A stretch of DNA of 33,087 bases from the NCBI GenBank assembly GCA_937139605.1, contig CAKZQG010000024.1:1-33087 (forward strand), read 5' to 3'. Positions 1 through 12,569 of the stretch are shown piece after piece (position 1 is the first letter of the stretch; every line of letters begins with the position of its first letter). The notes beneath the pieces were generated by a model. That model had not been told where the DNA came from. It worked only from the letters and a program-made list of their open reading frames with translations, and did no database searches. This DNA is from an uncultured bacterium. GTDB lineage: Bacteria; DRYD01. A program made the translations under genes and the position numbers.

Positions 1-44
1 AAAAAAAAAAAAATGTTATATGTAGTTTAGATATGATCTTTAAT

Positions 45-121
45 ATTAATCATCACTTCATTAAGTTATTAATAAGATGAGTCAAAAAAAAAAAAAAAAA
101 AAAAAAAAATCCTCTTTTTTT
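45..121. repeat. Left copy of window-end repeat with A26 tract
   Basis: A 39-bp block (45-83) matches 32664-32702 at about 33 of 39 positions. In both copies it is followed by a long A run (26 A here at 84-109, 15 A on the right), then TCCTC and seven T. On the minus strand the right copy contains AAGGAGGTGATGATTAATG, a strong Shine-Dalgarno and ATG. In this left copy both are degraded (AATGAAGTGATG, ATA in place of ATG), so it looks like a decayed relative. The window also opens with 13 A. The stretch 1-44 shows nothing else I can name. Confidence 0.75.
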
Positions 122-171
122 ATTATTAAAAATTTTATTATTTTATTGATAAAAATCAATTTTTCTTAGGG

Positions 172-286
172 AGTTAAGTAACCCCAAAAATCCCCTTAAT
201 AATGTGGTTTCACCTCATACCCTGTTTAAAATTTAAATAACCTTAAAAACCCCCTAACAATGAAGCTTTGCTCCATAGCTCCTTTG
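172..286. repeat. Tandem pair of ~58-bp hairpin repeats
   Basis: Two imperfect copies lie 58 bp apart. Each contains a 17-nt hairpin: 202-218 (ATG T GGT TTC ACC T CAT) and 260-276 (ATG A AGC TTT GCT C CAT). Stem pairs differ between copies but stay paired (GGT/ACC versus AGC/GCT), with one central mismatch in each. Read on the minus strand, both share TATG, CATT, TTA, a GGGG run, TTTTT and GGTTA-TTAA in order. Outside them, 169-184 and 286-302 carry GGGAGTTAAGTAACCCC-like and GGGGGTTAAGTACCCCC inverted repeats. The G/C runs stand out from the AT-rich surroundings. The block lies just downstream of recG. It is REP-like in form; I do not recognise the family. Confidence 0.65.
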
Positions 287-354
287 GGGGTTAAGTACCC
301 CCCTAACTAACGCCCCAATACCTCCACAAAATTTATCACAACATAAGCTAATTA

Positions 355-3012
355 TCAAACACTAACCGAAATATCTATAAATTTTTCTTCTATTTCTTTT
401 AGTTTATCTTTTATAAAATCCAATTGATTCTCATTTATATATTTTCCTAAAATCTTTGCTAAAATATTAGAAAAAGTAATCAATTGAATATCTTTTAAAG
501 GATTTAATGCTTTAAATTCAGTAAATCCGTGTTGTTTATAACCTATTATTTCTCCAGGCCCCCTTAATTCCAAATCCTTTTGAGCAATAGTAAAACCATC
601 ATCATAATATTTCAATATCTTTAATCTTTCTAAAGCCTTAGAAAATTCAATAGAACTTAAATCTTTAGAAGTTACTAATAAACAATAAGGTTGATGAGAA
701 GCACGCTTAACTCTCCCCCTAAGCTGATGTAATTGAGATAACCCAAATCTCTCGGCATCCAATATAACTATAGTATTAGCATTAGGAACATCTATCCCAA
801 CTTCTATAACCGTCGTTGATATTAAAATATCATATATCCCATTTCTAAAATCATTCATTATAGCTTCTTTTTGCTTAGAAGACATCTTCCCATGTAAAAT
901 CCCTATTCGTATATCTCTACCATTTATTTTATATTTTTTAAATTCATTTTGTAATTCATTAAGAGTTTGTTCTACATTTTTTAGTTTAATTTTTTTTCCT
1001 TCTTTTTCTTCAATAGCAGGGCAAATAAAATAAACCTGAAAATTATGCTCTAATTGTTTTAAAACAAATTTATAAACTTTATTTATATTAGAGTAATTAA
1101 ATATTTCAGTAATAGCTTCTTTTCTACCTGGTGGTAGCTCATAAATAACAGAGATATCTAAGTCACTATAAACAGTAAGAGCTAAGGTTCTTGGGATTGG
1201 AGTAGCGCTCATAACAACCAAATGAGAATCTAAAGATTTTAAATATAATTGATATCTTTGATTTACTCCGAATTTATGCTGCTCATCTATAATAACTAAC
1301 CCTAAATTCCTAAATTTCAGATTTTCATTTATTAAAGCATGCGTACCTATTAATATATCTAAATCCCCACTAAAGGATTCTTCAAAAACTAATTTCCTTT
1401 GATTACCTTTAACCTTAGAAGTTAAAAGCTTAATATTTATATTAAAATCACTGAGAATTTTAGTAAAATTAATATAATGTTGATTAGCTAAGACTTCAGT
1501 AGGTGCCATTAAAACACTTTGATATCCATTTACTTTTAATAAATACGCTAAGATAATAGCGATAATAGTTTTTCCTGCACCAACATCCCCCTGAATCAAT
1601 CTCCTTATTTTCTTACCCTTTTCAAAATCTAATATAAAATCATTCAAAACTCTTAGTTGTGCATTAGTTAAATTAAATGGTAAAATTTTAATTATTTCTT
1701 TTAGTTTTTCTTTAGTTTTAGATAAATCTATTTTAATATTAGTTTTTTCTTCCTTTTTAGAAATACTATTTAATAATACTTGAGTATAAATGATTTCTTC
1801 TAAAGCTAATCTATTTCTCGCTTTCTCTAAATAATCAAAATCCTTAGGATAATGGATATTTAAAAAAGAGTTTCTTAAATCTAAAAAATCAATTTCTACT
1901 TTTAAAATATCTTTTAAGTAAATTATTAAATCAAATAGTGAATCATTTATATATTTATAATAATTTTTAAGTGTTTCATAAATAAGAGTTCTAAACTTAG
2001 ATTGCTTTATTTTATTATTTCCTAAAGGATAAACTGGGACAATTTTATCAAAATTTAAAGTCTTTATACTATCTTTTTCCCATTCTTCAGGTACAATTTC
2101 ATTACCTTTTATTATTCTCCCAAATACTTTTATAACATCTCCCTTCTTTATAGAATACTTTATAAATTCTTGATTAAAAAAAACTAAAGTATAATATTTT
2201 TTAGAATTTTCTTCTATTGCTTCATATTTTAAGATTTTTATATTTTTATTTGTGTTTATTTCTAAATGATTAGAAATTATTTTTAATTTAATATATATTT
2301 TATCTTGATAGATGCTGAAATTCCTTCTATCTGAATAAGCTCTTGGCAAAAACCATAATAAATCACTTATTGTCTCTATTTTATTTTTCTTTAAGTATTT
2401 ATATAAATTATCATTTCTTTTTAATAATATTTTTTCTTCTAATTTTTTATTATCACCAAAATTTTTTGATTCTATTAGTTTTTTAAATTCTATAAAATAA
2501 ATATTAATTAATTGGTCTATATCTATTAAATTTAAATCTGTTTTAAGATTTGTTTTATTATTATTATTATTATTTTCTTGTATATTAGAAATTTCTGGAC
2601 TAAAAGAATATTCTATTAAAAATGAATTATTTAAATTATTGATCAGTATATTATGAATATTACTAAGATTTTCTTTAAATTTTTTAATTGATTTTTCTCT
2701 ATTAGTTTTATTTAAATTAGGATAATCTATTAGAATTAATGATAAATTATTTATATCTTGTTTTAAGTTGCCTAATGAATTATTTAAAACTTCAGAGTTA
2801 TTTAAAACTTCGGATAATTTGTCTAATTGATTTTTAACAGCTAAATAGATTCCTCCAAAGAAAGATTTATTTGTATAATTAGAATTTTCTTCTTTGTTTA
2901 AGATTTCTAAGATTTTTTGAAATATTTGGTTTATATAATCTTTTGTTGAATTTGTGATTTGGGTATTTGTTTGGGCATTATTTATAAGTTTGTTGTTGTA
3001 GTTATTATCCAT
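355..3012 (-). CDS. recG: ATP-dependent DNA helicase RecG
   Basis: This superfamily 2 helicase remodels stalled replication forks and Holliday junctions in the cytoplasm. Visible motifs are Walker A GDVGAGKT (475-482), DEQH (575-578), SATPIPRTLALT, and the QLHQLRGRVKR segment near the C-terminus. The wedge/OB domain starts near residue 197, with LLWFLPRAYSDRR at 218-230. At 885 residues it is about 200 longer than usual. The extra N-terminal part (1-195) is helical, Asn-rich and low in complexity, with a six-Asn run and a duplicated SEVLNN unit from an 18-bp tandem repeat near 2779-2814. Thermotoga-type RecG proteins also have an N-terminal extension. The stop is TGA followed directly by TAA. 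It reads away from the tRNA-Val gene upstream. Identity is secure; the role of the extension is unknown. Confidence 0.96.
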   Translation of the reverse strand: MDNNYNNKLINNAQTNTQITNSTKDYINQIFQKILEILNKEENSNYTNKSFFGGIYLAVKNQLDKLSEVLNNSEVLNNSLGNLKQDINNLSLILIDYPNLNKTNREKSIKKFKENLSNIHNILINNLNNSFLIEYSFSPEISNIQENNNNNNKTNLKTDLNLIDIDQLINIYFIEFKKLIESKNFGDNKKLEEKILLKRNDNLYKYLKKNKIETISDLLWFLPRAYSDRRNFSIYQDKIYIKLKIISNHLEINTNKNIKILKYEAIEENSKKYYTLVFFNQEFIKYSIKKGDVIKVFGRIIKGNEIVPEEWEKDSIKTLNFDKIVPVYPLGNNKIKQSKFRTLIYETLKNYYKYINDSLFDLIIYLKDILKVEIDFLDLRNSFLNIHYPKDFDYLEKARNRLALEEIIYTQVLLNSISKKEEKTNIKIDLSKTKEKLKEIIKILPFNLTNAQLRVLNDFILDFEKGKKIRRLIQGDVGAGKTIIAIILAYLLKVNGYQSVLMAPTEVLANQHYINFTKILSDFNINIKLLTSKVKGNQRKLVFEESFSGDLDILIGTHALINENLKFRNLGLVIIDEQHKFGVNQRYQLYLKSLDSHLVVMSATPIPRTLALTVYSDLDISVIYELPPGRKEAITEIFNYSNINKVYKFVLKQLEHNFQVYFICPAIEEKEGKKIKLKNVEQTLNELQNEFKKYKINGRDIRIGILHGKMSSKQKEAIMNDFRNGIYDILISTTVIEVGIDVPNANTIVILDAERFGLSQLHQLRGRVKRASHQPYCLLVTSKDLSSIEFSKALERLKILKYYDDGFTIAQKDLELRGPGEIIGYKQHGFTEFKALNPLKDIQLITFSNILAKILGKYINENQLDFIKDKLKEIEEKFIDISVSV

Positions 3013-3037
3013 TTATTATAATAATATAATAAATAAT

Positions 3038-3110
3038 TGGGCGAGATAGGAATTGAACCTATGACCTCCTGCGTGTGAAACAGGCGCTCTAACCACTGAG
3101 CTACTCGCCC
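3038..3110 (-). tRNA. tRNA-Val (anticodon CAC)
   Basis: A full cloverleaf can be drawn on the minus strand. The acceptor stem is GGGCGAG/CTCGCCC with discriminator A. The D arm contains GCTCAGTGGTTAGAGC. The anticodon stem CCTGT/GCAGG holds the loop TTCACAC, giving anticodon CAC (reads GUG). The T arm contains GGTTCAATTCC. CCA is not encoded. One copy of the 38-bp direct repeat that boxes the restriction-modification cassette starts only 4 bp upstream of its 5' end. Confidence 0.95.
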
Positions 3111-3114
3111 CTTT

Positions 3115-3152
3115 ATATTTATTTTCTTAATATCTATTAAACTACCCTTTTA
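3115..3152. repeat. Left 38-bp direct repeat boxing the R-M cassette
   Basis: This stretch matches 5075-5112 at 36 of 38 positions; the mismatches are at 3136 (A/G) and 3144 (A/T). The copies are exactly 1960 bp apart and enclose only the nuclease and methyltransferase genes. The left copy lies just upstream of tRNA-Val, so it may include that gene's promoter. Confidence 0.85.
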
Positions 3153-3206
3153 ATAATATTCGAATTATAAAAAATACTTTTAATATTATCAAAAAATATT
3201 TCTAAA

Positions 3207-4101
3207 TCAAAAAATATTTCTAATTAAGTCTAACATCTTATAATTCAAAACGTAATGAATGTGTTTCATAGAGTTTAGAATTATATTTTCAGCATTAATC
3301 CAAGCGGGCCCATCAGTAACCCATATAAAATTAATCCCTCTTTCATCAGCAATTTGAGTCATATATATATAACTTTCTGATATGGCATTAATTTTACTTC
3401 CTAAAACATTATAAAAACTACATTCAATAACCGCTACTGGATTGGAATTTTTATAAATAACAAAATCATGAACTTTAGCTTTCCTTTTATTTTTATTCCT
3501 TTTATTTAGATAAGAATATAAGGAAAATTTATAATCATTTTCTATTATAGTATAAATATTAGTTGAGATAATTTTTATTATTTTTTGATAACACATTTTT
3601 TGAAATATTTTTCCACTTCTATTTTTTCTAGCGTTTGAATCCAAGCCAACTTCTACCCCTAATATGTAATCGTATATATCATCTACTTCTTGAAATAAAT
3701 CAAGAATTCCCGTCTTTCTACAAAATTTTAAAATTTTTTCTACTTTAGTTATATCAATATTTAGTTTATTAAATTCAAAATCTAAAATATCTTGTAACTC
3801 TAAATCAAAAACACAAATTTTTTTATTGTTAATTCTTTCTGCTATAATAATAGGAATTACTTCTATTACTTCAGGATATTTCAATAAAAGTTCTTTAAAA
3901 TAATTTTCTCTCTCCTTTTGATGAACCTTAGATAAAGAATTTAATAAAGAAATCTCTTTAATATATTTATTTATATTTTTTTTTTATCTTTTTCCAATTA
4001 ACAAAATAATCATATGTTTTATTTGAAATTAAAAGAGTATCAAAAAAATATTTTTTAAAATTATCGAAGTTGTCAAATCCTAAATTTTTAAATTTAACCA
4101 T
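3207..4101 (-). CDS. DpnII-like type II restriction endonuclease, frameshifted at an A10 run
   Basis: The long downstream frame (3207 to about 3983) contains GLDSNARKNRSG, HDFVIY, PVAVIECSFYN and FIWVTDGPAWIN, which match the DpnII-type restriction endonuclease family. The N-terminal part is in another frame. It starts at the ATG at 4099-4101, 12 bases after the methyltransferase stop, and reads MVKFKNLGFDNF, continuing through TYDYFVNWKKIK. At 3976-3985 (ten A on the minus strand) this frame runs into a stop. With nine A it would join NINKYIKEISLLNSLS and give about 297 residues, close to DpnII size. A TTG at 3884 would give only a truncated protein. The frame ends in TGA, with a second TGA-TAA pair six codons on, inside a 17-bp tandem repeat at 3191-3223. 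The break could be a decayed nuclease, a slippage-prone switch, or a read error. Confidence 0.8.
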
Positions 4102-4113
4102 TATATAAAAAAT

Positions 4114-5034
4114 TTACCACCATTTTATGCTAAATTTATATTTTTTTAATTCATTATTGTTTAAAGGTTTTGTAAAGATAAATAAATGTTCATGAGCAAT
4201 AAGGTAAAAATCATTTTCCTTTTTATTCCACTTTTCCCGAGTGGTTTTCATATTCCATTGAACTTTAATAATATCTTCTTTTAAGATAAAACCAGCTTCT
4301 AAAAAAATCTGCATAACCATAAAGGAAAGTGGGACATAATGTTTATGCTTTCTAGTATCCCCAATCAATATAGCACAATTTTTACCTGCTTTTAAAACTC
4401 TAAAAGATTCTGCCGCTACTTTCCTCATTTCACTTAAATATTCAGATAGTGATAACTGAGATAAATCATCACTTTGCTTTCTAGTTTTAGTATAAGAAAC
4501 TATATTAGCATAAGGAGGATGGGTAGCTATAAGGTCTATACTTTCATCTTTTATTTCATTTAAATTCCTAGCATCACCTACATACGTCTTTATATCCACT
4601 TTTTCATTTTTTAAAGAAAATATATCATTAGCAAAGTTTAACCTATCTAGAGTTATCATTATAGCATCCAAATTAATATCTACTCCTATAGCATTTCTAT
4701 TTAACAATTTAGCTTCTATAAGAGTAGTCCCGCTACCTACCATTTGATCTAATACATAATCTCCTTCCTTAGTATATTTTAAAATAAGATTTCGTGGAAT
4801 ATAAGGAGACCAATTCCCTCTGTAGTTACCTTTGTGAGTAGCCCAATCACCTCTATTAGGGAAACTCCAAACTGTTGTTCTTTCATTGATATATTTATCA
4901 GGACCATATGATTTTATATTCCAAACCCCGTTTAACTTTATCTCAACATCCTCTATGATAACAAATTGATTCTTCTTAATAAAATTCTTATAATCTTCAT
5001 ATGTTATTTCTTGCATTTTTCTATATATTCCCAT
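4114..5034 (-). CDS. DNA methyltransferase of the R-M pair (N6-adenine/N4-cytosine type)
   Basis: This SAM-dependent methyltransferase should modify a DNA base and protect host sites from the neighbouring nuclease. SAM-binding motif I is DQMVGSGTT (96-104), with the acidic GVDIN at 117-121. The catalytic motif IV is THPPYANIVSYT (171-182); Pro-Pro-Tyr is typical of exocyclic-amino methylation. The motif order I then IV, with a long N-terminal part containing GNYRGNWSPYIPR (69-81), fits a beta-type arrangement. The length of 306 residues looks complete. The frame opens at MGIYRKM; the first ATG has no clear ribosome site and the second Met, six codons later, is possible. The gene leads a two-gene operon with the restriction enzyme 12 bases downstream. 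The target sequence cannot be read from the protein. Confidence 0.88.
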   Translation of the reverse strand: MGIYRKMQEITYEDYKNFIKKNQFVIIEDVEIKLNGVWNIKSYGPDKYINERTTVWSFPNRGDWATHKGNYRGNWSPYIPRNLILKYTKEGDYVLDQMVGSGTTLIEAKLLNRNAIGVDINLDAIMITLDRLNFANDIFSLKNEKVDIKTYVGDARNLNEIKDESIDLIATHPPYANIVSYTKTRKQSDDLSQLSLSEYLSEMRKVAAESFRVLKAGKNCAILIGDTRKHKHYVPLSFMVMQIFLEAGFILKEDIIKVQWNMKTTREKWNKKENDFYLIAHEHLFIFTKPLNNNELKKYKFSIKWW

Positions 5035-5074
5035 ATTTTTACTAAAATTTTACTACATTTATTACTTATTTCTA

Positions 5075-5112
5075 ATATTTATTTTCTTAATATCTGTTAA
5101 ACTTCCCTTTTA
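5075..5112. repeat. Right 38-bp direct repeat boxing the R-M cassette
   Basis: This is the partner of 3115-3152 (36/38 identical). It lies about 40 bp upstream of the methyltransferase start and so sits where that operon's promoter would be, just as the left copy sits upstream of tRNA-Val. Confidence 0.85.
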
Positions 5113-5163
5113 TTTTTTATATTTATAAAAATAATAAAATTAAAAGGAAATGTTAATAAATAG

Positions 5164-5169
5164 TATAAT
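5164..5169 (+). promoter_or_regulatory. Possible -10 box for rimO-trpS
   Basis: TATAAT lies 55 bp upstream of the rimO start. I see no convincing -35 at the normal distance, and such hexamers arise by chance in this AT-rich DNA. A GGGAGAGAG stretch (about 5180-5187) follows but is too far from the ATG at 5224 for a normal ribosome site. Confidence 0.35.
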
Positions 5170-5223
5170 AGAATAAAAGGGAGAGAGCAATTAAAATAAA
5201 AAATTAAAATATAAATAAAACAT

Positions 5224-6564
5224 ATGGCAAAATTCACAGTAATAACATTAGGATGCTCTAAAAATACCGTAGATAGTGAAATAATATTAGCTTCATTAAT
5301 TGATAGAAACCATACATATACCAATAACCTTCAAGAATCTGATATAGTTATAATAAATACCTGCGGCTTTATTAAACCAGCTATTAATCAATCTATGCAA
5401 ACTGTGCAAAACGTTATAAATACTATTAAAGAAAATAATTTAAAAACTAAAGTAATTGTAACAGGATGTTTAGTAACACGTCAAAAAGAAAAATTAACCC
5501 AAATATTTAAAGAAGTTAATGGATTTTATGATACAGCTACATTTAATAACATCCCTTATGATATAAATGATATTATACAAGGAAAAAAAATAATAAAATT
5601 AAGCGAATATACAAAATCTATTGATTATTCCTATAAATTATCGAAATTTATAACCACTGGATATTACTCATATGTAAAAATAGCAGAGGGATGTAATCAT
5701 ACCTGCTCGTTTTGCTACATCCCTAAAATTAGAGGTAAATACAAATCTAGATCAATAGAAGATATATATATGGAAGTAAAAAAATTAGTAAATTTAGGAA
5801 TAAAAGAAATAATCTTAGTATCCCAAGATACTTCCTTTTATGGGTACGATTTGTATAAAAAATTAGCTTTAAGTGAATTATTAGAAAAATTAGCAACTAT
5901 TGAAGGAGACTTTTGGATAAGAATGCTTTATCTTTATCCTACTACTCTAAACACTGAAGCTATTAAAACCATTGCAAACTATAATAAAATTGTAAAATAT
6001 ATCGATATCCCTCTTCAACATGCCAGCTTAAAAGTATTAAGAGCTATGAGAAGACCCGGACATAAAGAGTTCTATTTAAAACTATTAGATAAAATTAGAT
6101 CTACAATAAACAATGTAATAATAAGATCAACATTTATAGTAGGACATCCATACGAAGAAGAAGAAGATTTTAAAGAATTAATTGATTTCTTATTAAAAGC
6201 TAAAATAGAACGTGCAGGATTCTTTAAATATTACAGAGAAAAAGGAACTTTATCTTATACACTACCCCAAATTAGCTATAAAATAAAACAAAAACGATAT
6301 AACGAAATAATGAATATCCAAGATGATATCTTAAAAGAATGGTCAAATAACCAAATTAACAAAACTTTTAAAGTATTAATAGAATCAAAAGAAGATGGGT
6401 ATTTTATAGGGAGAGCATATTTTGACGCTCCTGAAGTAGATTCCTATATTAAAATAAAATCTAATAAATCTACTAAAAAAATTAAATTAGGTAATTTTTA
6501 TTACGTAAAAATAACAAACTATAACCATAATACCTATGAATTTGAGGGAATATTAAACGAATAA
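5224..6564 (+). CDS. rimO: Ribosomal protein S12 methylthiotransferase RimO
   Basis: RimO is a radical-SAM enzyme that adds a methylthio group to an Asp of ribosomal protein S12. The N-terminal UPF0004 domain has cluster cysteines C11 (LGCSKNTVDSE, diagnostic for RimO over MiaB), C47 (NTCGF) and C82 (TGC). The radical-SAM cluster motif is CNHTCSFC (C157, C161, C164). A TRAM-like C-terminal segment starts near residue 380 (FKVLIESKEDGYFIGRA). The length of 446 residues is normal. The ATG at 5224 gives the family's usual N-terminus although no ribosome site is close. trpS follows 40 bp downstream on the same strand, so the two are probably co-transcribed. Confidence 0.96.
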   Translation: MAKFTVITLGCSKNTVDSEIILASLIDRNHTYTNNLQESDIVIINTCGFIKPAINQSMQTVQNVINTIKENNLKTKVIVTGCLVTRQKEKLTQIFKEVNGFYDTATFNNIPYDINDIIQGKKIIKLSEYTKSIDYSYKLSKFITTGYYSYVKIAEGCNHTCSFCYIPKIRGKYKSRSIEDIYMEVKKLVNLGIKEIILVSQDTSFYGYDLYKKLALSELLEKLATIEGDFWIRMLYLYPTTLNTEAIKTIANYNKIVKYIDIPLQHASLKVLRAMRRPGHKEFYLKLLDKIRSTINNVIIRSTFIVGHPYEEEEDFKELIDFLLKAKIERAGFFKYYREKGTLSYTLPQISYKIKQKRYNEIMNIQDDILKEWSNNQINKTFKVLIESKEDGYFIGRAYFDAPEVDSYIKIKSNKSTKKIKLGNFYYVKITNYNHNTYEFEGILNE

Positions 6565-6604
6565 TTAATTTAAATAATAAAGTATTTAATAAGGGAGTGG
6601 ATTT

Positions 6605-7597
6605 ATGGAAGTATTAGTAAGTGGAATGAGACCTACAGGAAAATTACATATAGGCCATATTTTTGGCGCTCTTAAAAACTGGAAAGAATATCAAGATAAA
6701 TATAAAAGCTACTTTATTATAGTAGATTGGCATGCATTAACTACCAATTACCAAAAAACCCAAGAATTACAAGAATATATCAAAGAAGTTATGATAGATT
6801 ATTTAGCCTTTGGAATAGATCCTAATAAAGCTGTAATATATTTACAATCAATGGTAAAAGATGTAGCTGTTTTACATTTAATACTGTCAATGATAGTTCC
6901 ATTAAGTTGGCTTGAAAGAGTCCCTTCTTTTAAAGATCAAATAAAAGAGTTAGGAAAAGATATAGCTACCTATGGATTTTTTGGGTACCCTGTATTAATG
7001 AGTGCAGATATCTTAGCTTTTAATGCCTCTATTGTACCAGTGGGAGAAGATCAACTCCCTCATTTAGAATTAACTAGAGAAATCGCAAGAAGATTTAATT
7101 ATTTATACGGTGATACTTTTATAGAACCTAAAGAATTATTAACAAATACTCCATATATCCCAGGTTTTGATGGAAGAAAAATGAGTAAAAGCTATAATAA
7201 CGCTATCTTTATTGATGATGATGAAAAAACTATTAAAGAAAAAGTAATGAAATACATAACAGATCCTAATAAAATATATAAGAATTCTCCTGGAAGGCCG
7301 GAAATATGTAATGTATTTTCACTACATAAAGCTTTTGAAAATCCTGAAACCAAAGAAATTGAAGAAAATTGTAAAAAAGGAACCTTAGGATGTGTAGAAT
7401 GTAAATTAAAACTATGTAATATAATAAATAATTTTATTTCCCCTATAAGATATAAAAGGAAACAAATAGAAAAAAATAAAGATGATGTTATAGATATATT
7501 AAAAGAAGGCTCAAAAAAAGCTTCAGAAATAGTAGCTAATACCTTAGATAAAGTTTATTATAAAGTTAATCTAAAAGGAAATTTAATTAAAAATTAA
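6605..7597 (+). CDS. trpS: Tryptophan--tRNA ligase
   Basis: This class I aminoacyl-tRNA synthetase charges tRNA-Trp. The HIGH motif is HIGH at 15-18 (GKLHIGHIFGA) and the KMSKS motif is KMSKS at 192-196 (GRKMSKSYNN). VGEDQLPHLELTREIARRF is the usual Rossmann segment. At 330 residues it is the typical bacterial length. A good ribosome site (GGGAGTGG) precedes the ATG by about six bases. It forms a probable pair with rimO. Confidence 0.97.
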   Translation: MEVLVSGMRPTGKLHIGHIFGALKNWKEYQDKYKSYFIIVDWHALTTNYQKTQELQEYIKEVMIDYLAFGIDPNKAVIYLQSMVKDVAVLHLILSMIVPLSWLERVPSFKDQIKELGKDIATYGFFGYPVLMSADILAFNASIVPVGEDQLPHLELTREIARRFNYLYGDTFIEPKELLTNTPYIPGFDGRKMSKSYNNAIFIDDDEKTIKEKVMKYITDPNKIYKNSPGRPEICNVFSLHKAFENPETKEIEENCKKGTLGCVECKLKLCNIINNFISPIRYKRKQIEKNKDDVIDILKEGSKKASEIVANTLDKVYYKVNLKGNLIKN

Positions 7598-7600
7598 AAA

Positions 7601-7624
7601 TTAATAATTAATAATTAATAATTA
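7601..7624. repeat. Heptamer microsatellite (TTAATAA)x3
   Basis: Three perfect copies of TTAATAA plus a partial fourth lie just after trpS and before the receiver gene. It is an AT-only simple repeat with no sign of a terminator. Confidence 0.7.
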
Positions 7625-7654
7625 AAAACTATTTAAAGAGGTGAGAATAAAATT

Positions 7655-8050
7655 ATGATACCTGATAAGAAAAAAATAAAAATCTTAGTATTAGATGATG
7701 AACCTAATATAACTAATTTAGTTAGTAATATATTAGAACTAGAAGGATATGAATCATTAAAAGCTAATAGTGTTAAAGAAGCTTTAGAAATCTTAGATAA
7801 AAATTGGAAAGAAATAAAAATAATGATCTGTGATTATAAGATGCCTGAAATGGATGGCTTAGAATTTGTTAAAAAAGTTAGACAAAACCCATTATATAAT
7901 AATATAGACATTCTAATGCTTACAGCTGTAGATACCTATGAAACTATTAAACAATCGACTCTATTAGGAGTTAAAGATTATATAATAAAACCTTTTGAAC
8001 CACAAGAAATTATAGAAGCTATTGAAAGAGTTTTAATCCAAAAAAATTAA
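7655..8050 (+). CDS. Single-domain response regulator (CheY-like receiver)
   Basis: A stand-alone receiver domain of 131 residues with no output domain. The acidic pocket is D14-D15 (LVLDDEP), the phosphoacceptor is D60 (ICDYKMPEMDG), and T90 and K112 (LMLT, IIKPFE) complete the active site. It therefore should accept phosphate. AGAGGTGAG lies about ten bases before the ATG. It leads a five-gene run with an exported helical protein, a PhoB-type regulator, a sensor kinase lacking its His, and an OstA-like protein. Its target and its kinase are not evident. Confidence 0.93.
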   Translation: MIPDKKKIKILVLDDEPNITNLVSNILELEGYESLKANSVKEALEILDKNWKEIKIMICDYKMPEMDGLEFVKKVRQNPLYNNIDILMLTAVDTYETIKQSTLLGVKDYIIKPFEPQEIIEAIERVLIQKN

Positions 8051-8072
8051 CTACTTTACAATAATAAATTTT

Positions 8073-8780
8073 ATGATAATAAAATTTAAAAATTTAAAAA
8101 TATATAAAAAAATACTAATAATTTTATTGTGTTTTTTTATTAGTGTTGTTAAAATTTATTCTATAGAAGATGATTCATTAAAAAAAGCTCAGATTTATGA
8201 AGAAAAAGGATATAATTATTACAAAATTGCTAAAAGCTATTATTATAATCAAGATTACAAATATAGCTCATTAAATTATGTTAATTCAATTTCATACTTA
8301 ACTTTAGCTTATATAATATATTTAGATAAACTAAATAATAAAGAAAAATTTTTAGATATTTCTAAAGATGTTTTATTTTTTTCTAATGAATTAAATATTT
8401 CTTTATCTAAAATAAGAGATAAATCAAAGATAGATACAGTAAATTCATTATATGCTAGTAATTATTTAAACATGGCTTCAACATTACAAAAAATTTATGC
8501 AACTGATCCAAAATATTCCTTAGATTTTTATAAAAACCAATATATCCCTTTTGTAAATAATATTTATAAAAAAGAAACAAATATAAAAGAAATAATCAAT
8601 GAAAATATTTTAATTCAGATTGCTATTTATTATAAAAAATCAATTGATTATTACTTATTGGTAAATGATTATGATAAAGCTAAAAAATCTCTTCAAGATT
8701 TAAGAAAATATTATGATTTAGTAAAAATAAAAGAAATTGAAAATATTTTAAAGGAAGTTGAAAAAAAATTAAAGAAATAA
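8073..8780 (+). CDS. Exported helical protein of unknown function
   Basis: I do not recognise this 235-residue protein. It has a basic N-terminus and a hydrophobic stretch (about 14-30, ILIILLCFFISVVKIYS), consistent with a signal peptide or membrane anchor. The rest is predicted helical, rich in Lys, Tyr and Asn, with spaced Ala/Tyr patterns such as YNYYKIAKSYYYNQDYKYS and YDKAKKSLQDLRKYY that resemble TPR-like helix pairs. It starts 22 bases after the receiver gene without a clear ribosome site and lies ahead of the PhoB-type regulator, so it is probably a periplasmic or membrane-attached part of that system. Confidence 0.75.
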   Translation: MIIKFKNLKIYKKILIILLCFFISVVKIYSIEDDSLKKAQIYEEKGYNYYKIAKSYYYNQDYKYSSLNYVNSISYLTLAYIIYLDKLNNKEKFLDISKDVLFFSNELNISLSKIRDKSKIDTVNSLYASNYLNMASTLQKIYATDPKYSLDFYKNQYIPFVNNIYKKETNIKEIINENILIQIAIYYKKSIDYYLLVNDYDKAKKSLQDLRKYYDLVKIKEIENILKEVEKKLKK

Positions 8781-8824
8781 TATTTTTTAAATTTTTAAAT
8801 AAATAAAGGGGGTGGAACTAAAAA

Positions 8825-9526
8825 ATGGAAGCTAAAATACTAATAGTTGATGATGAAAAGAATATCGTGGAATTAATTAAATTTCATTTAAAAAAAGAAA
8901 ATTATAGAGTTATAGAAGCATATAAAGGGAAAGATGCTATAGATTTATTTAAAAAAGAGAAACCGGATCTAATTATATTAGACGTTATGTTGCCTGATAT
9001 GGGAGGATTTGAGGTTTGTAAAAATATACGAAAAGAAAGTAAAGTACCAATAATAATGCTAACAGCTAAAGGAGAAGAAATAGATAAGATATTAGGTTTT
9101 GAGTTAGGAGCAGATGATTACATAACCAAACCGTTTAGCCCAAGAGAACTATTAGCAAGAATCAAAGCTATCCTAAAAAGAACTAGAACCACAAATGTAG
9201 ATACTAATCAAATTCAATTAGGGCCATTCAAAGTTAATGTAAATAGACGTGAAATCTATAAAAATGATGTACTCTTAGAATTGAAACCTAAAGAATTTGA
9301 TTTATTAAAATTATTTATAATGAACCCCGGAAGAGTTTTTACTAGACAATACTTATTAGAACAAATATGGGGTTATGATTACTTAGGAGATACTAGAACT
9401 GTAGATGTACATATTAGAAGATTAAGGCAAAAAATAGAAGATAATGCTAAAAATGCCAATTATATTAAAACCATACATGGTGTAGGATATAAATTTGTAA
9501 TTGAAGGCGAAGAGGAAGAACAATAA
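8825..9526 (+). CDS. OmpR/PhoB-family response regulator
   Basis: A DNA-binding response regulator. The receiver domain (1-120) has D9-D10, phosphoacceptor D53 (ILDVMLPDMGG), LTAKGEE and ITKPF. The winged-helix output domain (about 127-228) has LKPKEFDLLKLF, the recognition helix region DTRTVDVHIRRLRQKI and the wing IHGVGYKF. The length of 233 residues is normal. A strong ribosome site (AAAGGGGGTGGA) precedes the ATG. The downstream neighbour is a PhoR-like sensor whose phosphoacceptor His is missing, so how this regulator is phosphorylated is an open question. Confidence 0.96.
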   Translation: MEAKILIVDDEKNIVELIKFHLKKENYRVIEAYKGKDAIDLFKKEKPDLIILDVMLPDMGGFEVCKNIRKESKVPIIMLTAKGEEIDKILGFELGADDYITKPFSPRELLARIKAILKRTRTTNVDTNQIQLGPFKVNVNRREIYKNDVLLELKPKEFDLLKLFIMNPGRVFTRQYLLEQIWGYDYLGDTRTVDVHIRRLRQKIEDNAKNANYIKTIHGVGYKFVIEGEEEEQ

Positions 9527-9571
9527 TACAAGAGATACTTAAAAATTATTTATTTTATCATAAAATAAAAA

Positions 9572-10747
9572 ATGGCAAGCACTAAAAGAAAAATAATAGA
9601 TATAATTAATGATATAATCCAATTAATAAAATTCCCTACTGTAATATTAGATAAAAAGTCCAATATTATTTTATTTAATTCTATTTTTAAAACTACATTT
9701 TTAAGTTCTAAAAATGATCAAAAAGAAGGGGTAATATTATTAGATATAGTAGAATCTCAAGAAAATAAAGAAAAAATCCAATTTTTTCTGAATAACCCTT
9801 TCAAATCTCCTTTTTTAGTTAATATCTCTAAAGATCTCATAGATCCTTACATCTATAACTTATTAAATCTTTTAAATACTTTAGAAATAAAACCTACCAA
9901 TTTAACATCTATAAACGTAATATACAAAGATACAATTTTTGAATTGATTTTAATAAGATTATATATTGATTCAAAGGAATTATTTTTAGCTATATTTTTT
10001 TCTCCTAAAATAATAGATTCTGATAAAAACACAATATTACTTAATAAAAAAATAGAATTTTTAAATAAAAAAATAGAAATTTTAACAAATGTGGCTAATA
10101 AGATTTTTACTACAACTAAAGCCTTCACTGAAACATTACTAAGTGGATACTATAAAGATCCAGAAGTTTCTAAAAATCTTATATCCATTATAGATAAAGA
10201 AGTAAAAGAAGGAATAAAATTACTATTAAATATATTAACTCTTAATATTGTTGAAAGCTTAAATTTAAATAAACAAAAGGTAGATTCTTATAATTACTTT
10301 CTAAATATAAGCCAAAATTTTAAATCTAAAGTTATTGATTTTAATTCAGTTAATTCACTAAACGTTATTTTTAATTATTTCATTCAACCTAATTTACCCC
10401 CAATTTTCATAGATATAGATAAATTTACATTAGCTATAAATAATATCCTAGATAACGCTCTAAAATTTCAAGATTTTAATAAAAAAGAAAATTATATTGA
10501 TTTAAAAGTTTTTTTTGAATCAAATGAAAATATTATAAATATAACTATAACAGATAATGGAATAGGAATAAGTGAAAATGATATAAAAGATATTGGAGAA
10601 CTTTTTAAAACTTTTTCTGATAAATCCGGTTTAGGTTTAGGATTATATGTTTCCAAAAATATTCTCAAAGCTCATAATTGTACACTTGAAGTAAATTCTA
10701 CCCTTAATAAAGAAACTACCTTCATTATAAAATTACCTTTAGAATAA
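9572..10747 (+). CDS. PhoR-like sensor kinase without phosphoacceptor His
   Basis: An N-terminal PAS-like region (about 10-145) contains FPTVILDKKSNIILFN. A dimerisation region (about 165-225) reads NVANKIFTTTKAFTETLL, and then an ATPase domain follows. The ATPase motifs are intact: N box INNILDNALKF (289-299), G1 DNGIGI (328-333), G2 GLGLGLYVSK (353-362). The dimerisation helix aligns with PhoR kinases (FTETLL plus IIDKE), but where those have His-Glu-Leu-Arg-Thr-Pro this protein has no His; Asn173 or Asn176 falls at that place. The only His in the protein is near residue 368. No strong membrane segment is seen, so it may be cytosolic. It follows its PhoB-type regulator and precedes the OstA-like gene by 4 bp. 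Confidence 0.88.
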   Translation: MASTKRKIIDIINDIIQLIKFPTVILDKKSNIILFNSIFKTTFLSSKNDQKEGVILLDIVESQENKEKIQFFLNNPFKSPFLVNISKDLIDPYIYNLLNLLNTLEIKPTNLTSINVIYKDTIFELILIRLYIDSKELFLAIFFSPKIIDSDKNTILLNKKIEFLNKKIEILTNVANKIFTTTKAFTETLLSGYYKDPEVSKNLISIIDKEVKEGIKLLLNILTLNIVESLNLNKQKVDSYNYFLNISQNFKSKVIDFNSVNSLNVIFNYFIQPNLPPIFIDIDKFTLAINNILDNALKFQDFNKKENYIDLKVFFESNENIINITITDNGIGISENDIKDIGELFKTFSDKSGLGLGLYVSKNILKAHNCTLEVNSTLNKETTFIIKLPLE

Positions 10748-10751
10748 AAAT

Positions 10752-12569
10752 ATGAAATACAATAAAAAAAATAAATTTAATTATTTTTTATTAATTATTT
10801 TTTTAGTAATATTTTTTTTAGTTTTTACGAATTTATATAGTTTCTTGAATTTTAATTTATTAAGCTATGCTTTAGAAAATAAGGTTAAAAATGAAAATCT
10901 AAATATAGAAAACTCAAAGAATCCTGAAAATACTGAAAATACTCAAAATACTAAAAATACTCAAAATACTGAAAGTACTCAAAAATATATTTATCATAGA
11001 AGTGATAAACTCCTTTATGATAGTAAAAACAAATATTTTGAATTAGTAGGTAATGTGGAGATATTTTATGAGGATACCAAGGTCAAATGTGATTTATTTA
11101 GGTATTATGAAGACAAAGAATTTGGGATAGCTAGTGGTAATCCTGCTCTTTATAATCCTTCTACTTTTATTAAATCTGATAGTGTTGAAATATATTTCAA
11201 AATAAAAAAATTAGTCGCTAAAAATAACGTATATATTAAAATCAAAAATCAACAAGAAAATAATAATCCAAAAGATAAAAATAATAATAAAAAAGATACT
11301 CCAAAATATTTTGAAATATTTACAGATACATTAACATATAACTGGGAAAATGAAATAGTTTATATTCCAACTAAGGTTAAAATAGTATCAACTAATTTAT
11401 ATCTTTATGCAGATACCTTAACATACAATGTAAAAAATAACTTAATAATATTAAAGGGGAATGTTTATGGGAAAAAAGATGAACAAAAAATCTGGGCTGA
11501 TAAACTCACTTATAATACTAAAAAAGAAACCCTAATAATGGAAGGTAATGTTAAATCTATTATAAAATCTGAAAAAAAAAATGAAACTACACAAAGTTCA
11601 TCAAATCCTTTAGAATTTAAATTATTAACAACGCAAGATATATACAATAACTTAATAAAACAAAACCAAAAAATAACTGATTACTTTATTAATAAATATT
11701 TATACTCCCCTTACATTACTATCAATTTAAATTACTACACTACTTTTGATATTTACCAATCAAATGACCTAAATTACTATATTTATAATATAAATCAAAT
11801 TTATAGCAATAATAATAAATATACAGCTTATATATTTCCATCTAACTTTTATATTTCTAAAAATATAAACGATTGTTTTATAAAAATAAAAAAAGATATT
11901 ATTAATATTGAATTTAATAATACAAAAGAACTATATTTATATTTTATTTTAAGGCAAAAAGATGAAAAATATTTATTTTTTGAAAACCTTAATGAACTTT
12001 ATAATAATTTATTAAATTCTTATGAAAGTATCTACTCAAATATATATAGAAATTTTAATAATAATAGTGAAAATATATATAATAGTTTAAAATTAAGCCC
12101 AATATTAATAAAGGAATTTAAATTTACATATTACAGGTCTAAAATTATTTCAGAAATATATGATGAAGAACTAATAAATATCTTAAAAAACATTTATAAA
12201 AAGTATAATAGTGCTTATATAGACATAAATGACATTCAAAATTATAATTATTTATTAAAAATAGTAGATAACTTTAAAGACTTTTCTGGCACTATCGCTT
12301 TTTATTTAGATTCTAAACTACTTTCCTTTTTATTAACTAATCAACAAATAAATGATTTTCTTAATTTAAAGTGTAATAAAATAGTTTTAGTTAATTCAAT
12401 AGAAATTTATAACTACTTAAATAATATAAATTATTTTTATAGTTTTAGTAAATATTTATTTGATCTTAGTTATATATATGATTTAAAGATAATAGTTGAT
12501 AGCAATATTTATTTTAATAAAATTTATAAAAAATTAAAGCCTAAGTTCGAAATATATTTTAATAATTAA
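10752..12569 (+). CDS. OstA/LptA-like envelope protein with a novel C-terminal half
   Basis: The protein starts with a membrane/signal segment (about 11-40, LLIIFLVIFFLVFTNLYSFL). An Asn-Thr-rich linker follows (about 57-77), encoded by 9-bp tandem repeats at 10925-10983. Residues about 80-275 carry repeated OstA/LptA-type beta units: LLYDSKNKYFELVGNVEIFY, DTLTYNVKNNLIILKGNVYG, DKLTYNTKKETLIMEGNV. In LptA/OstA proteins such repeats form a lipopolysaccharide-binding beta-jellyroll. The C-terminal half (about 290-605) is Tyr/Asn/Ile-rich and matches nothing I know. The fusion is unusual; LptA is normally under 200 residues and LptD ends in a beta-barrel, which I do not see. Its place at the end of the two-component operon suggests an envelope-sensing role. 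Confidence 0.75.
   Translation: MKYNKKNKFNYFLLIIFLVIFFLVFTNLYSFLNFNLLSYALENKVKNENLNIENSKNPENTENTQNTKNTQNTESTQKYIYHRSDKLLYDSKNKYFELVGNVEIFYEDTKVKCDLFRYYEDKEFGIASGNPALYNPSTFIKSDSVEIYFKIKKLVAKNNVYIKIKNQQENNNPKDKNNNKKDTPKYFEIFTDTLTYNWENEIVYIPTKVKIVSTNLYLYADTLTYNVKNNLIILKGNVYGKKDEQKIWADKLTYNTKKETLIMEGNVKSIIKSEKKNETTQSSSNPLEFKLLTTQDIYNNLIKQNQKITDYFINKYLYSPYITINLNYYTTFDIYQSNDLNYYIYNINQIYSNNNKYTAYIFPSNFYISKNINDCFIKIKKDIINIEFNNTKELYLYFILRQKDEKYLFFENLNELYNNLLNSYESIYSNIYRNFNNNSENIYNSLKLSPILIKEFKFTYYRSKIISEIYDEELINILKNIYKKYNSAYIDINDIQNYNYLLKIVDNFKDFSGTIAFYLDSKLLSFLLTNQQINDFLNLKCNKIVLVNSIEIYNYLNNINYFYSFSKYLFDLSYIYDLKIIVDSNIYFNKIYKKLKPKFEIYFNN

What the first reader, a model, noticed from the sequence alone, without database searches (positions are those of the whole stretch)
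3115..5112. R-M cassette boxed by a 38-bp near-perfect direct repeat beside tRNA-Val
3115-3152 and 5075-5112 match at 36 of 38 positions with an exact offset of 1960 bp and enclose only the methyltransferase and restriction enzyme genes. The left copy abuts the 5' side of tRNA-Val and the right copy sits upstream of the methyltransferase. This looks like insertion with duplication of an upstream/promoter segment, which would give the cassette a host promoter. No transposase or integrase is present.
Basis: partly seen in the sequence, partly recalled or inferred. Interest (0 to 1): 0.62.

Follow-up and report, generated by a model that had tools for sequence, protein, structure and literature searches.

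The report
Restriction-modification genes inserted beside tRNA-Val
A two-gene DNA-methylation/DNA-cutting pair has jumped in beside a tRNA gene and left about 38 bases of the landing site copied on both sides, as a sister species with the site still empty shows; this way of moving is already known for such gene pairs.

Summary
The repeat is real: 3115-3152 and 5075-5112 match at 36/38 positions, offset 1960, and are the only two copies in the 1.88 Mb assembly. The closest available relative (same genus, RimO 83% identical) has tRNA-Val and rimO directly adjacent, with one copy of the repeat and no cassette. BLAST of that empty site onto the window splits into two blocks overlapping by 41 bp, the signature of a target-site duplication. 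The insert (3153-5074) holds only an N6/N4-type DNA methyltransferase gene and a DpnII-family restriction gene. No searched genome of its family or order has the restriction gene or a close copy of the methyltransferase gene. A bacterium outside its order (RimO 36% identical) has the same pair (64% and 45%) inside its pyr operon. So the pair was most likely acquired horizontally and inserted with a long target duplication, a behaviour already described for R-M systems. Ordinary in kind, unusually clean as an example.

The parts
3038..3110 (-). tRNA-Val (anticodon CAC), left neighbour of the insertion site
   Evidence: ARAGORN; Rfam tRNA 75 bits
3115..3152 (.). left copy of the 38-bp direct repeat: native segment directly upstream of tRNA-Val
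   Evidence: at both positions where the copies differ this copy agrees with the empty site of the sister species
3120..3127 (-). weak -10-like box (AGAAAATA on the minus strand) inside the left copy; its -35-like partner AAAAGGG is at 3145-3151
   Evidence: pattern fitted to 29 other tRNA upstream regions, 7.5 bits, weak
3153..5074 (-). insert: R-M cassette, 1922 bp, M then R on the minus strand
   Evidence: absent from the same-genus empty site and without a close counterpart in the other family and order members searched
3188..3223 (.). tandem pair of an 18-bp unit (ATCAAAAAATATTTCTAA) at the 3' end of the R gene
3207..4103 (-). restriction endonuclease gene, DpnII family (PF04556), split by a frameshift
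   Evidence: Pfam E 2.3e-55 on the 225-aa part; two frames seen; uninterrupted homologue in G050
3976..3985 (-). A10 tract (T10 on the + strand) where the R frame shifts
4114..5034 (-). DNA methyltransferase gene, N6_N4_Mtase family (PF01555), 306 aa, intact
   Evidence: Pfam E 4.7e-27; PADLOC MTase_II E 3.6e-82
5075..5112 (.). right copy of the 38-bp direct repeat, 40 nt upstream of the M start codon and continuous with the native rimO upstream region
5224..6564 (+). rimO, right neighbour of the insertion site
   Evidence: TIGR01125 435 bits

Best explanation
A type II restriction-modification pair (N6/N4-type methyltransferase plus DpnII-family endonuclease), acquired horizontally, inserted into the short spacer between tRNA-Val and rimO in the lineage of this genome. 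The insertion duplicated about 38 bp (38-41) of host sequence immediately upstream of tRNA-Val, so one copy still sits in front of the tRNA and the other sits in front of the methyltransferase gene. Shown: one-copy empty site in a sister species, native flanks outside both copies, uniqueness of the repeat, and a pair limited to this genome within its family. Inferred: that the event was a gain here and not a precise loss in the sister; that the copies arose by staggered breaks or repair during integration, since no recombinase is present; and that the right copy may act as a promoter for the methyltransferase. As read, the endonuclease is off because of a frameshift at an A10 tract, which could be a dead gene, a reversible switch or rescued by slippage.
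For: One-copy empty site in G001, which is same genus with RimO 83% identical. BLAST of the G001 contig: 6303 down to 12 matches window 5072-11260 and 6263-6394 matches window 3153-3024, so the blocks overlap by 41 bp at the repeat. The copies are unique in 1.88 Mb. DpnII-family R found only in G000 among 7 genomes of the family and order; M has no match in G001-G004 and only E 7e-4 and 8e-5 in G005 and G006. In G050 M is 64% and R 45% identical although RimO is only 36%, and the pair sits between pyrB and pyrC. M relatives at 52-75% in Calescamantes, Methanophagales, ANME and other archaeal MAGs. R-M insertion with long and variable target duplications is described (PMC3031569, PMC3874152).
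Against: Only one relative carries the tRNA-Val/rimO adjacency, so gain versus loss rests on parsimony. Deletion between the two copies in the sister would leave the same one-copy site. The assemblies are incomplete (71-90%), so absence of the pair elsewhere in the family is not proof. The exact ends of the duplication cannot be fixed in 24% G+C DNA.
Confidence: 0.87

Rival explanations
1. The cassette is ancestral at this site and the sister species lost it by recombination between the two 38-bp copies, leaving one copy.
For: Recombination between direct repeats would give exactly the one-copy site seen in G001.
Against: The R family is absent from all other family and order genomes searched and M has no close match there. 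The two repeats must themselves have arisen by an earlier insertion at the same place, so this only moves the insertion back in time.
Confidence: 0.1
2. The insertion used a recombinase supplied elsewhere, in the manner of a transposon or integron-like unit, with the repeat as its recognition site.
For: Direct repeats at both ends, next to a tRNA gene.
Against: No recombinase gene in the insert; no inverted termini (null equals or exceeds the observed score in 81% of shuffles); the repeat has no other copy in the genome; it lies upstream of the tRNA and not inside its 3' part; the related pair in G050 has no flanking repeat.
Confidence: 0.05
3. The two copies are chance or functional look-alikes (two independent promoters of the same type).
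For: The genome is 24% G+C and tRNA upstream regions share a loose pattern.
Against: 36/38 identity including the non-box spacer; no third copy with up to 3 mismatches in 1.88 Mb; other tRNA upstream regions do not look like it outside the boxes; shuffles never come near.
Confidence: 0.01

Closest known systems
R-M insertion with long target duplication (Nobusato et al. 2000, Gene 259:99-108; Furuta et al. 2010, NAR 38:2428), as summarised in PMC3031569 and PMC3874152
   Same: R-M genes alone between direct repeats of host sequence; no transposase; one copy in a related genome that lacks the R-M genes
   Different: The duplication is 38-41 bp, shorter than the order of 100 bp quoted in PMC3874152; the copied segment is a tRNA upstream region. 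The two primary papers were not held and could not be read.
DpnII/MboI-type R-M systems (D12-class methyltransferase, DpnII-family nuclease, second N6/N4 methyltransferase)
   Same: Nuclease of the DpnII family beside an N6_N4-type methyltransferase; G042 carries a full three-gene set with homologous M and R
   Different: No D12-class methyltransferase in the cassette, nor any PF02086 match elsewhere in the assembly; M here is closest to a PADLOC type II family and only weakly similar to DpnA. Recognition sequence not established.

Membership tests
R-M insertion with long target duplication | direct repeats of host sequence flank the R-M genes | tested here: met
R-M insertion with long target duplication | related genome with one copy and no R-M genes at the same place | tested here: met
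   G001:
R-M insertion with long target duplication | no transposase or integrase within the unit | tested here: met
   only M and R frames in 3153-5074
R-M insertion with long target duplication | duplication longer than typical transposon duplications, order of 100 bp and variable | tested here: inconclusive
   38-41 bp here; above the 4-10 bp reported for IS1 and IS5 in PMC3031569, below the 100 bp order in PMC3874152
Type II restriction-modification system | adjacent methyltransferase and endonuclease genes of recognised families | tested here: met
Type II restriction-modification system | intact endonuclease reading frame | tested here: not met
   frameshift at A10, 3976-3985; the family call still holds by homology, activity is in doubt
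DpnII/GATC-type R-M system | D12-class N6-adenine methyltransferase present | tested here: not met
   no PF02086 match in the genome (assembly 88.5% complete)
DpnII/GATC-type R-M system | recognises GATC | not testable with these tools
   GATC observed/expected 0.71 in 126 kb, CTAG 0.36; not diagnostic

The most novel reading that the evidence does not exclude
The target duplication works as promoter capture: by landing in and copying a tRNA promoter, the cassette obtains a constitutive host promoter for the methyltransferase, while the endonuclease behind it is held off or switched by an A10 slippage tract, so that protection precedes restriction after arrival.
Probability: 0.15. Interest if true: 0.5.

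Novelty: new member of a known kind. Interest (0 to 1): 0.3.

Why it matters
It is a clean example, with both the occupied and the empty site, of an R-M pair inserting by itself with duplication of host sequence, in a sparsely sampled lineage. If the copied segment drives the methyltransferase, it would link the insertion mechanism to expression of the newcomer, which can be tested directly.

Tried and rejected
Chance repeat: rejected. Genome-wide repeat family: rejected. tRNA-targeted integrase island: rejected, because the repeat is upstream of the tRNA and the insert has no integrase. Transposon-like inverted ends: none above chance. Long flanking repeats around related M genes in G050, L079, L081 and L082: none convincing. 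GATC specificity from word depletion: inconclusive. A viral origin of the cassette: the viral scan gave only one partial 34% match. The paper of Furuta et al. 2010 is not held.

Full report
Observation. Window 3115-3152 and 5075-5112 are identical at 36 of 38 positions at an offset of 1960 bp. In the same 3.8 kb the best direct repeat in 30 dinucleotide-preserving shuffles scores 18 at most against 30 observed. A 32-base core allowing both variants and 3 mismatches occurs in the own 1.88 Mb assembly at these two places only. tRNA-Val(CAC) lies at 3038-3110 on the minus strand, so the left copy is the segment just upstream of the tRNA gene. The right copy is 40 nt upstream of the ATG at 5034 of a minus-strand methyltransferase gene.

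Genes inside. The 1922-bp insert 3153-5074 holds an N6_N4-type DNA methyltransferase (PF01555, E 4.7e-27; PADLOC MTase_II, E 3.6e-82) and a DpnII-family endonuclease (PF04556, E 2.3e-55). The endonuclease gene is broken as read. Its N-terminal frame ends shortly after an A10 run (3976-3985), and the remaining 258 codons continue in another frame that has no ATG near its start. The family profile matches positions 3-33 in one frame and 25-272 in the other. The homologue in G050 is one 293-aa frame across the same place. An error, a dead gene, a phase switch and slippage cannot be told apart here; another A10 run in the window (11572-11581) lies inside an intact ORF.

Empty site. In the only other genome of the same genus that is held (G001; RimO 83% identical) tRNA-Val and rimO are separated by 135 bp with one copy of the segment and no cassette. 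Joining the window's two flanks over either repeat copy gives a sequence that aligns throughout with the G001 spacer. BLAST of the G001 contig gives two blocks, G001 12-6303 against window 11260-5072 and G001 6263-6394 against window 3153-3024. They overlap by 41 bp on G001 exactly at the repeat. That is what a target duplication looks like. At both positions where the two copies differ, the tRNA-side copy agrees with G001, so the other copy is the one that changed.

Acquisition. Among G000-G006 (family and order) the DpnII-family gene occurs only in G000. M has no match in G001-G004 and only marginal ones in G005 and G006. In G050, outside the order and with RimO only 36% identical, M is 64% and R 45% identical, with the same order and overlapping genes, between pyrB and pyrC in a pyrimidine operon. 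M relatives at 52-75% occur in MAGs of Calescamantes, Methanophagales, ANME and other archaea. Gene product names of the pyr genes are my reading of the translations. Horizontal acquisition of an M-R unit is the straightforward reading. A loss in G001 by recombination between repeats would leave the same site and is disfavoured only by parsimony.

Mechanism. Shown: insertion of M-R with a duplication of about 38 bp of host DNA. Inferred: how. There is no recombinase in the unit, no inverted termini and no other copy of the 38-mer, so staggered breakage and fill-in, or illegitimate recombination of incoming DNA, is more likely than a dedicated site-specific enzyme. R-M units that insert with long and variable target duplications without a known mobile element are described (PMC3031569, PMC3874152, citing Nobusato 2000 and Furuta 2010, which I could not read). 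The present case belongs there, with a shorter duplication than the order of 100 bp given in the review.

Promoter. Fitting a two-box pattern to the upstream regions of 29 other tRNA genes gives AAAGAGG, about 15 bp, ATAGAATA. Both repeat copies contain AAAAGGG, 17 bp, AGAAAATA at 7.5 bits, a weak member of the set; 7 of 200 (right) and 8 of 200 (left) shuffles reach it. Both differences between the copies fall in the spacer between the boxes. It is therefore plausible but not shown that the left copy drives tRNA-Val and the right copy drives the methyltransferase.

Neighbourhood. The gene next to the 3' side of tRNA-Val differs: recG here, an acyl-CoA dehydrogenase in G001, whose counterpart in G000 lies on another contig. 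A chromosomal breakpoint thus lies within about 13 bp of the tRNA 3' end on the G001 side, with the cassette on the other side of the same tRNA. Which species rearranged, and whether it is connected with the insertion, cannot be decided.

Verdict. It is a new member of a known kind.

Noticed in passing
L092 5434-5530 and 8630-8791 (G042:C1 around 1273.4-1276.8 kb): A related three-gene R-M set (D12-type M, DpnII-family R, N6/N4-type M) lies between two groups of the same 30-base CRISPR-type repeat, with a small Cas2-like ORF beside it at 8964-9227: possibly an R-M insertion into a CRISPR array.
   Followed up: partly
window 3010-3040; L093 6394-6475; L106 4527-5534: Chromosomal breakpoint directly at the 3' side of tRNA-Val: recG follows in this genome, an acyl-CoA dehydrogenase gene in the sister species.
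   Followed up: partly
upstream of tRNA genes in G000 (loci L107-L136): tRNA genes share an upstream pattern AAAGAGG, about 15 bp, ATAGAATA; the -35-like box looks like a ribosome-binding sequence and not like TTGACA.
   Followed up: partly
window 3976-3985 and 11572-11581: Two A10 runs inside genes: one breaks the restriction gene, the other lies in an intact 605-aa ORF (10752-12569).
   Followed up: partly
window 3188-3223: Two perfect tandem copies of an 18-bp unit span the end of the R gene; its last 8 bases (ATTTCTAA) recur directly at the edge of the right repeat copy (about 5068-5075).
   Followed up: no
window 84-109: A 26-base A run close to the contig end.
   Followed up: no
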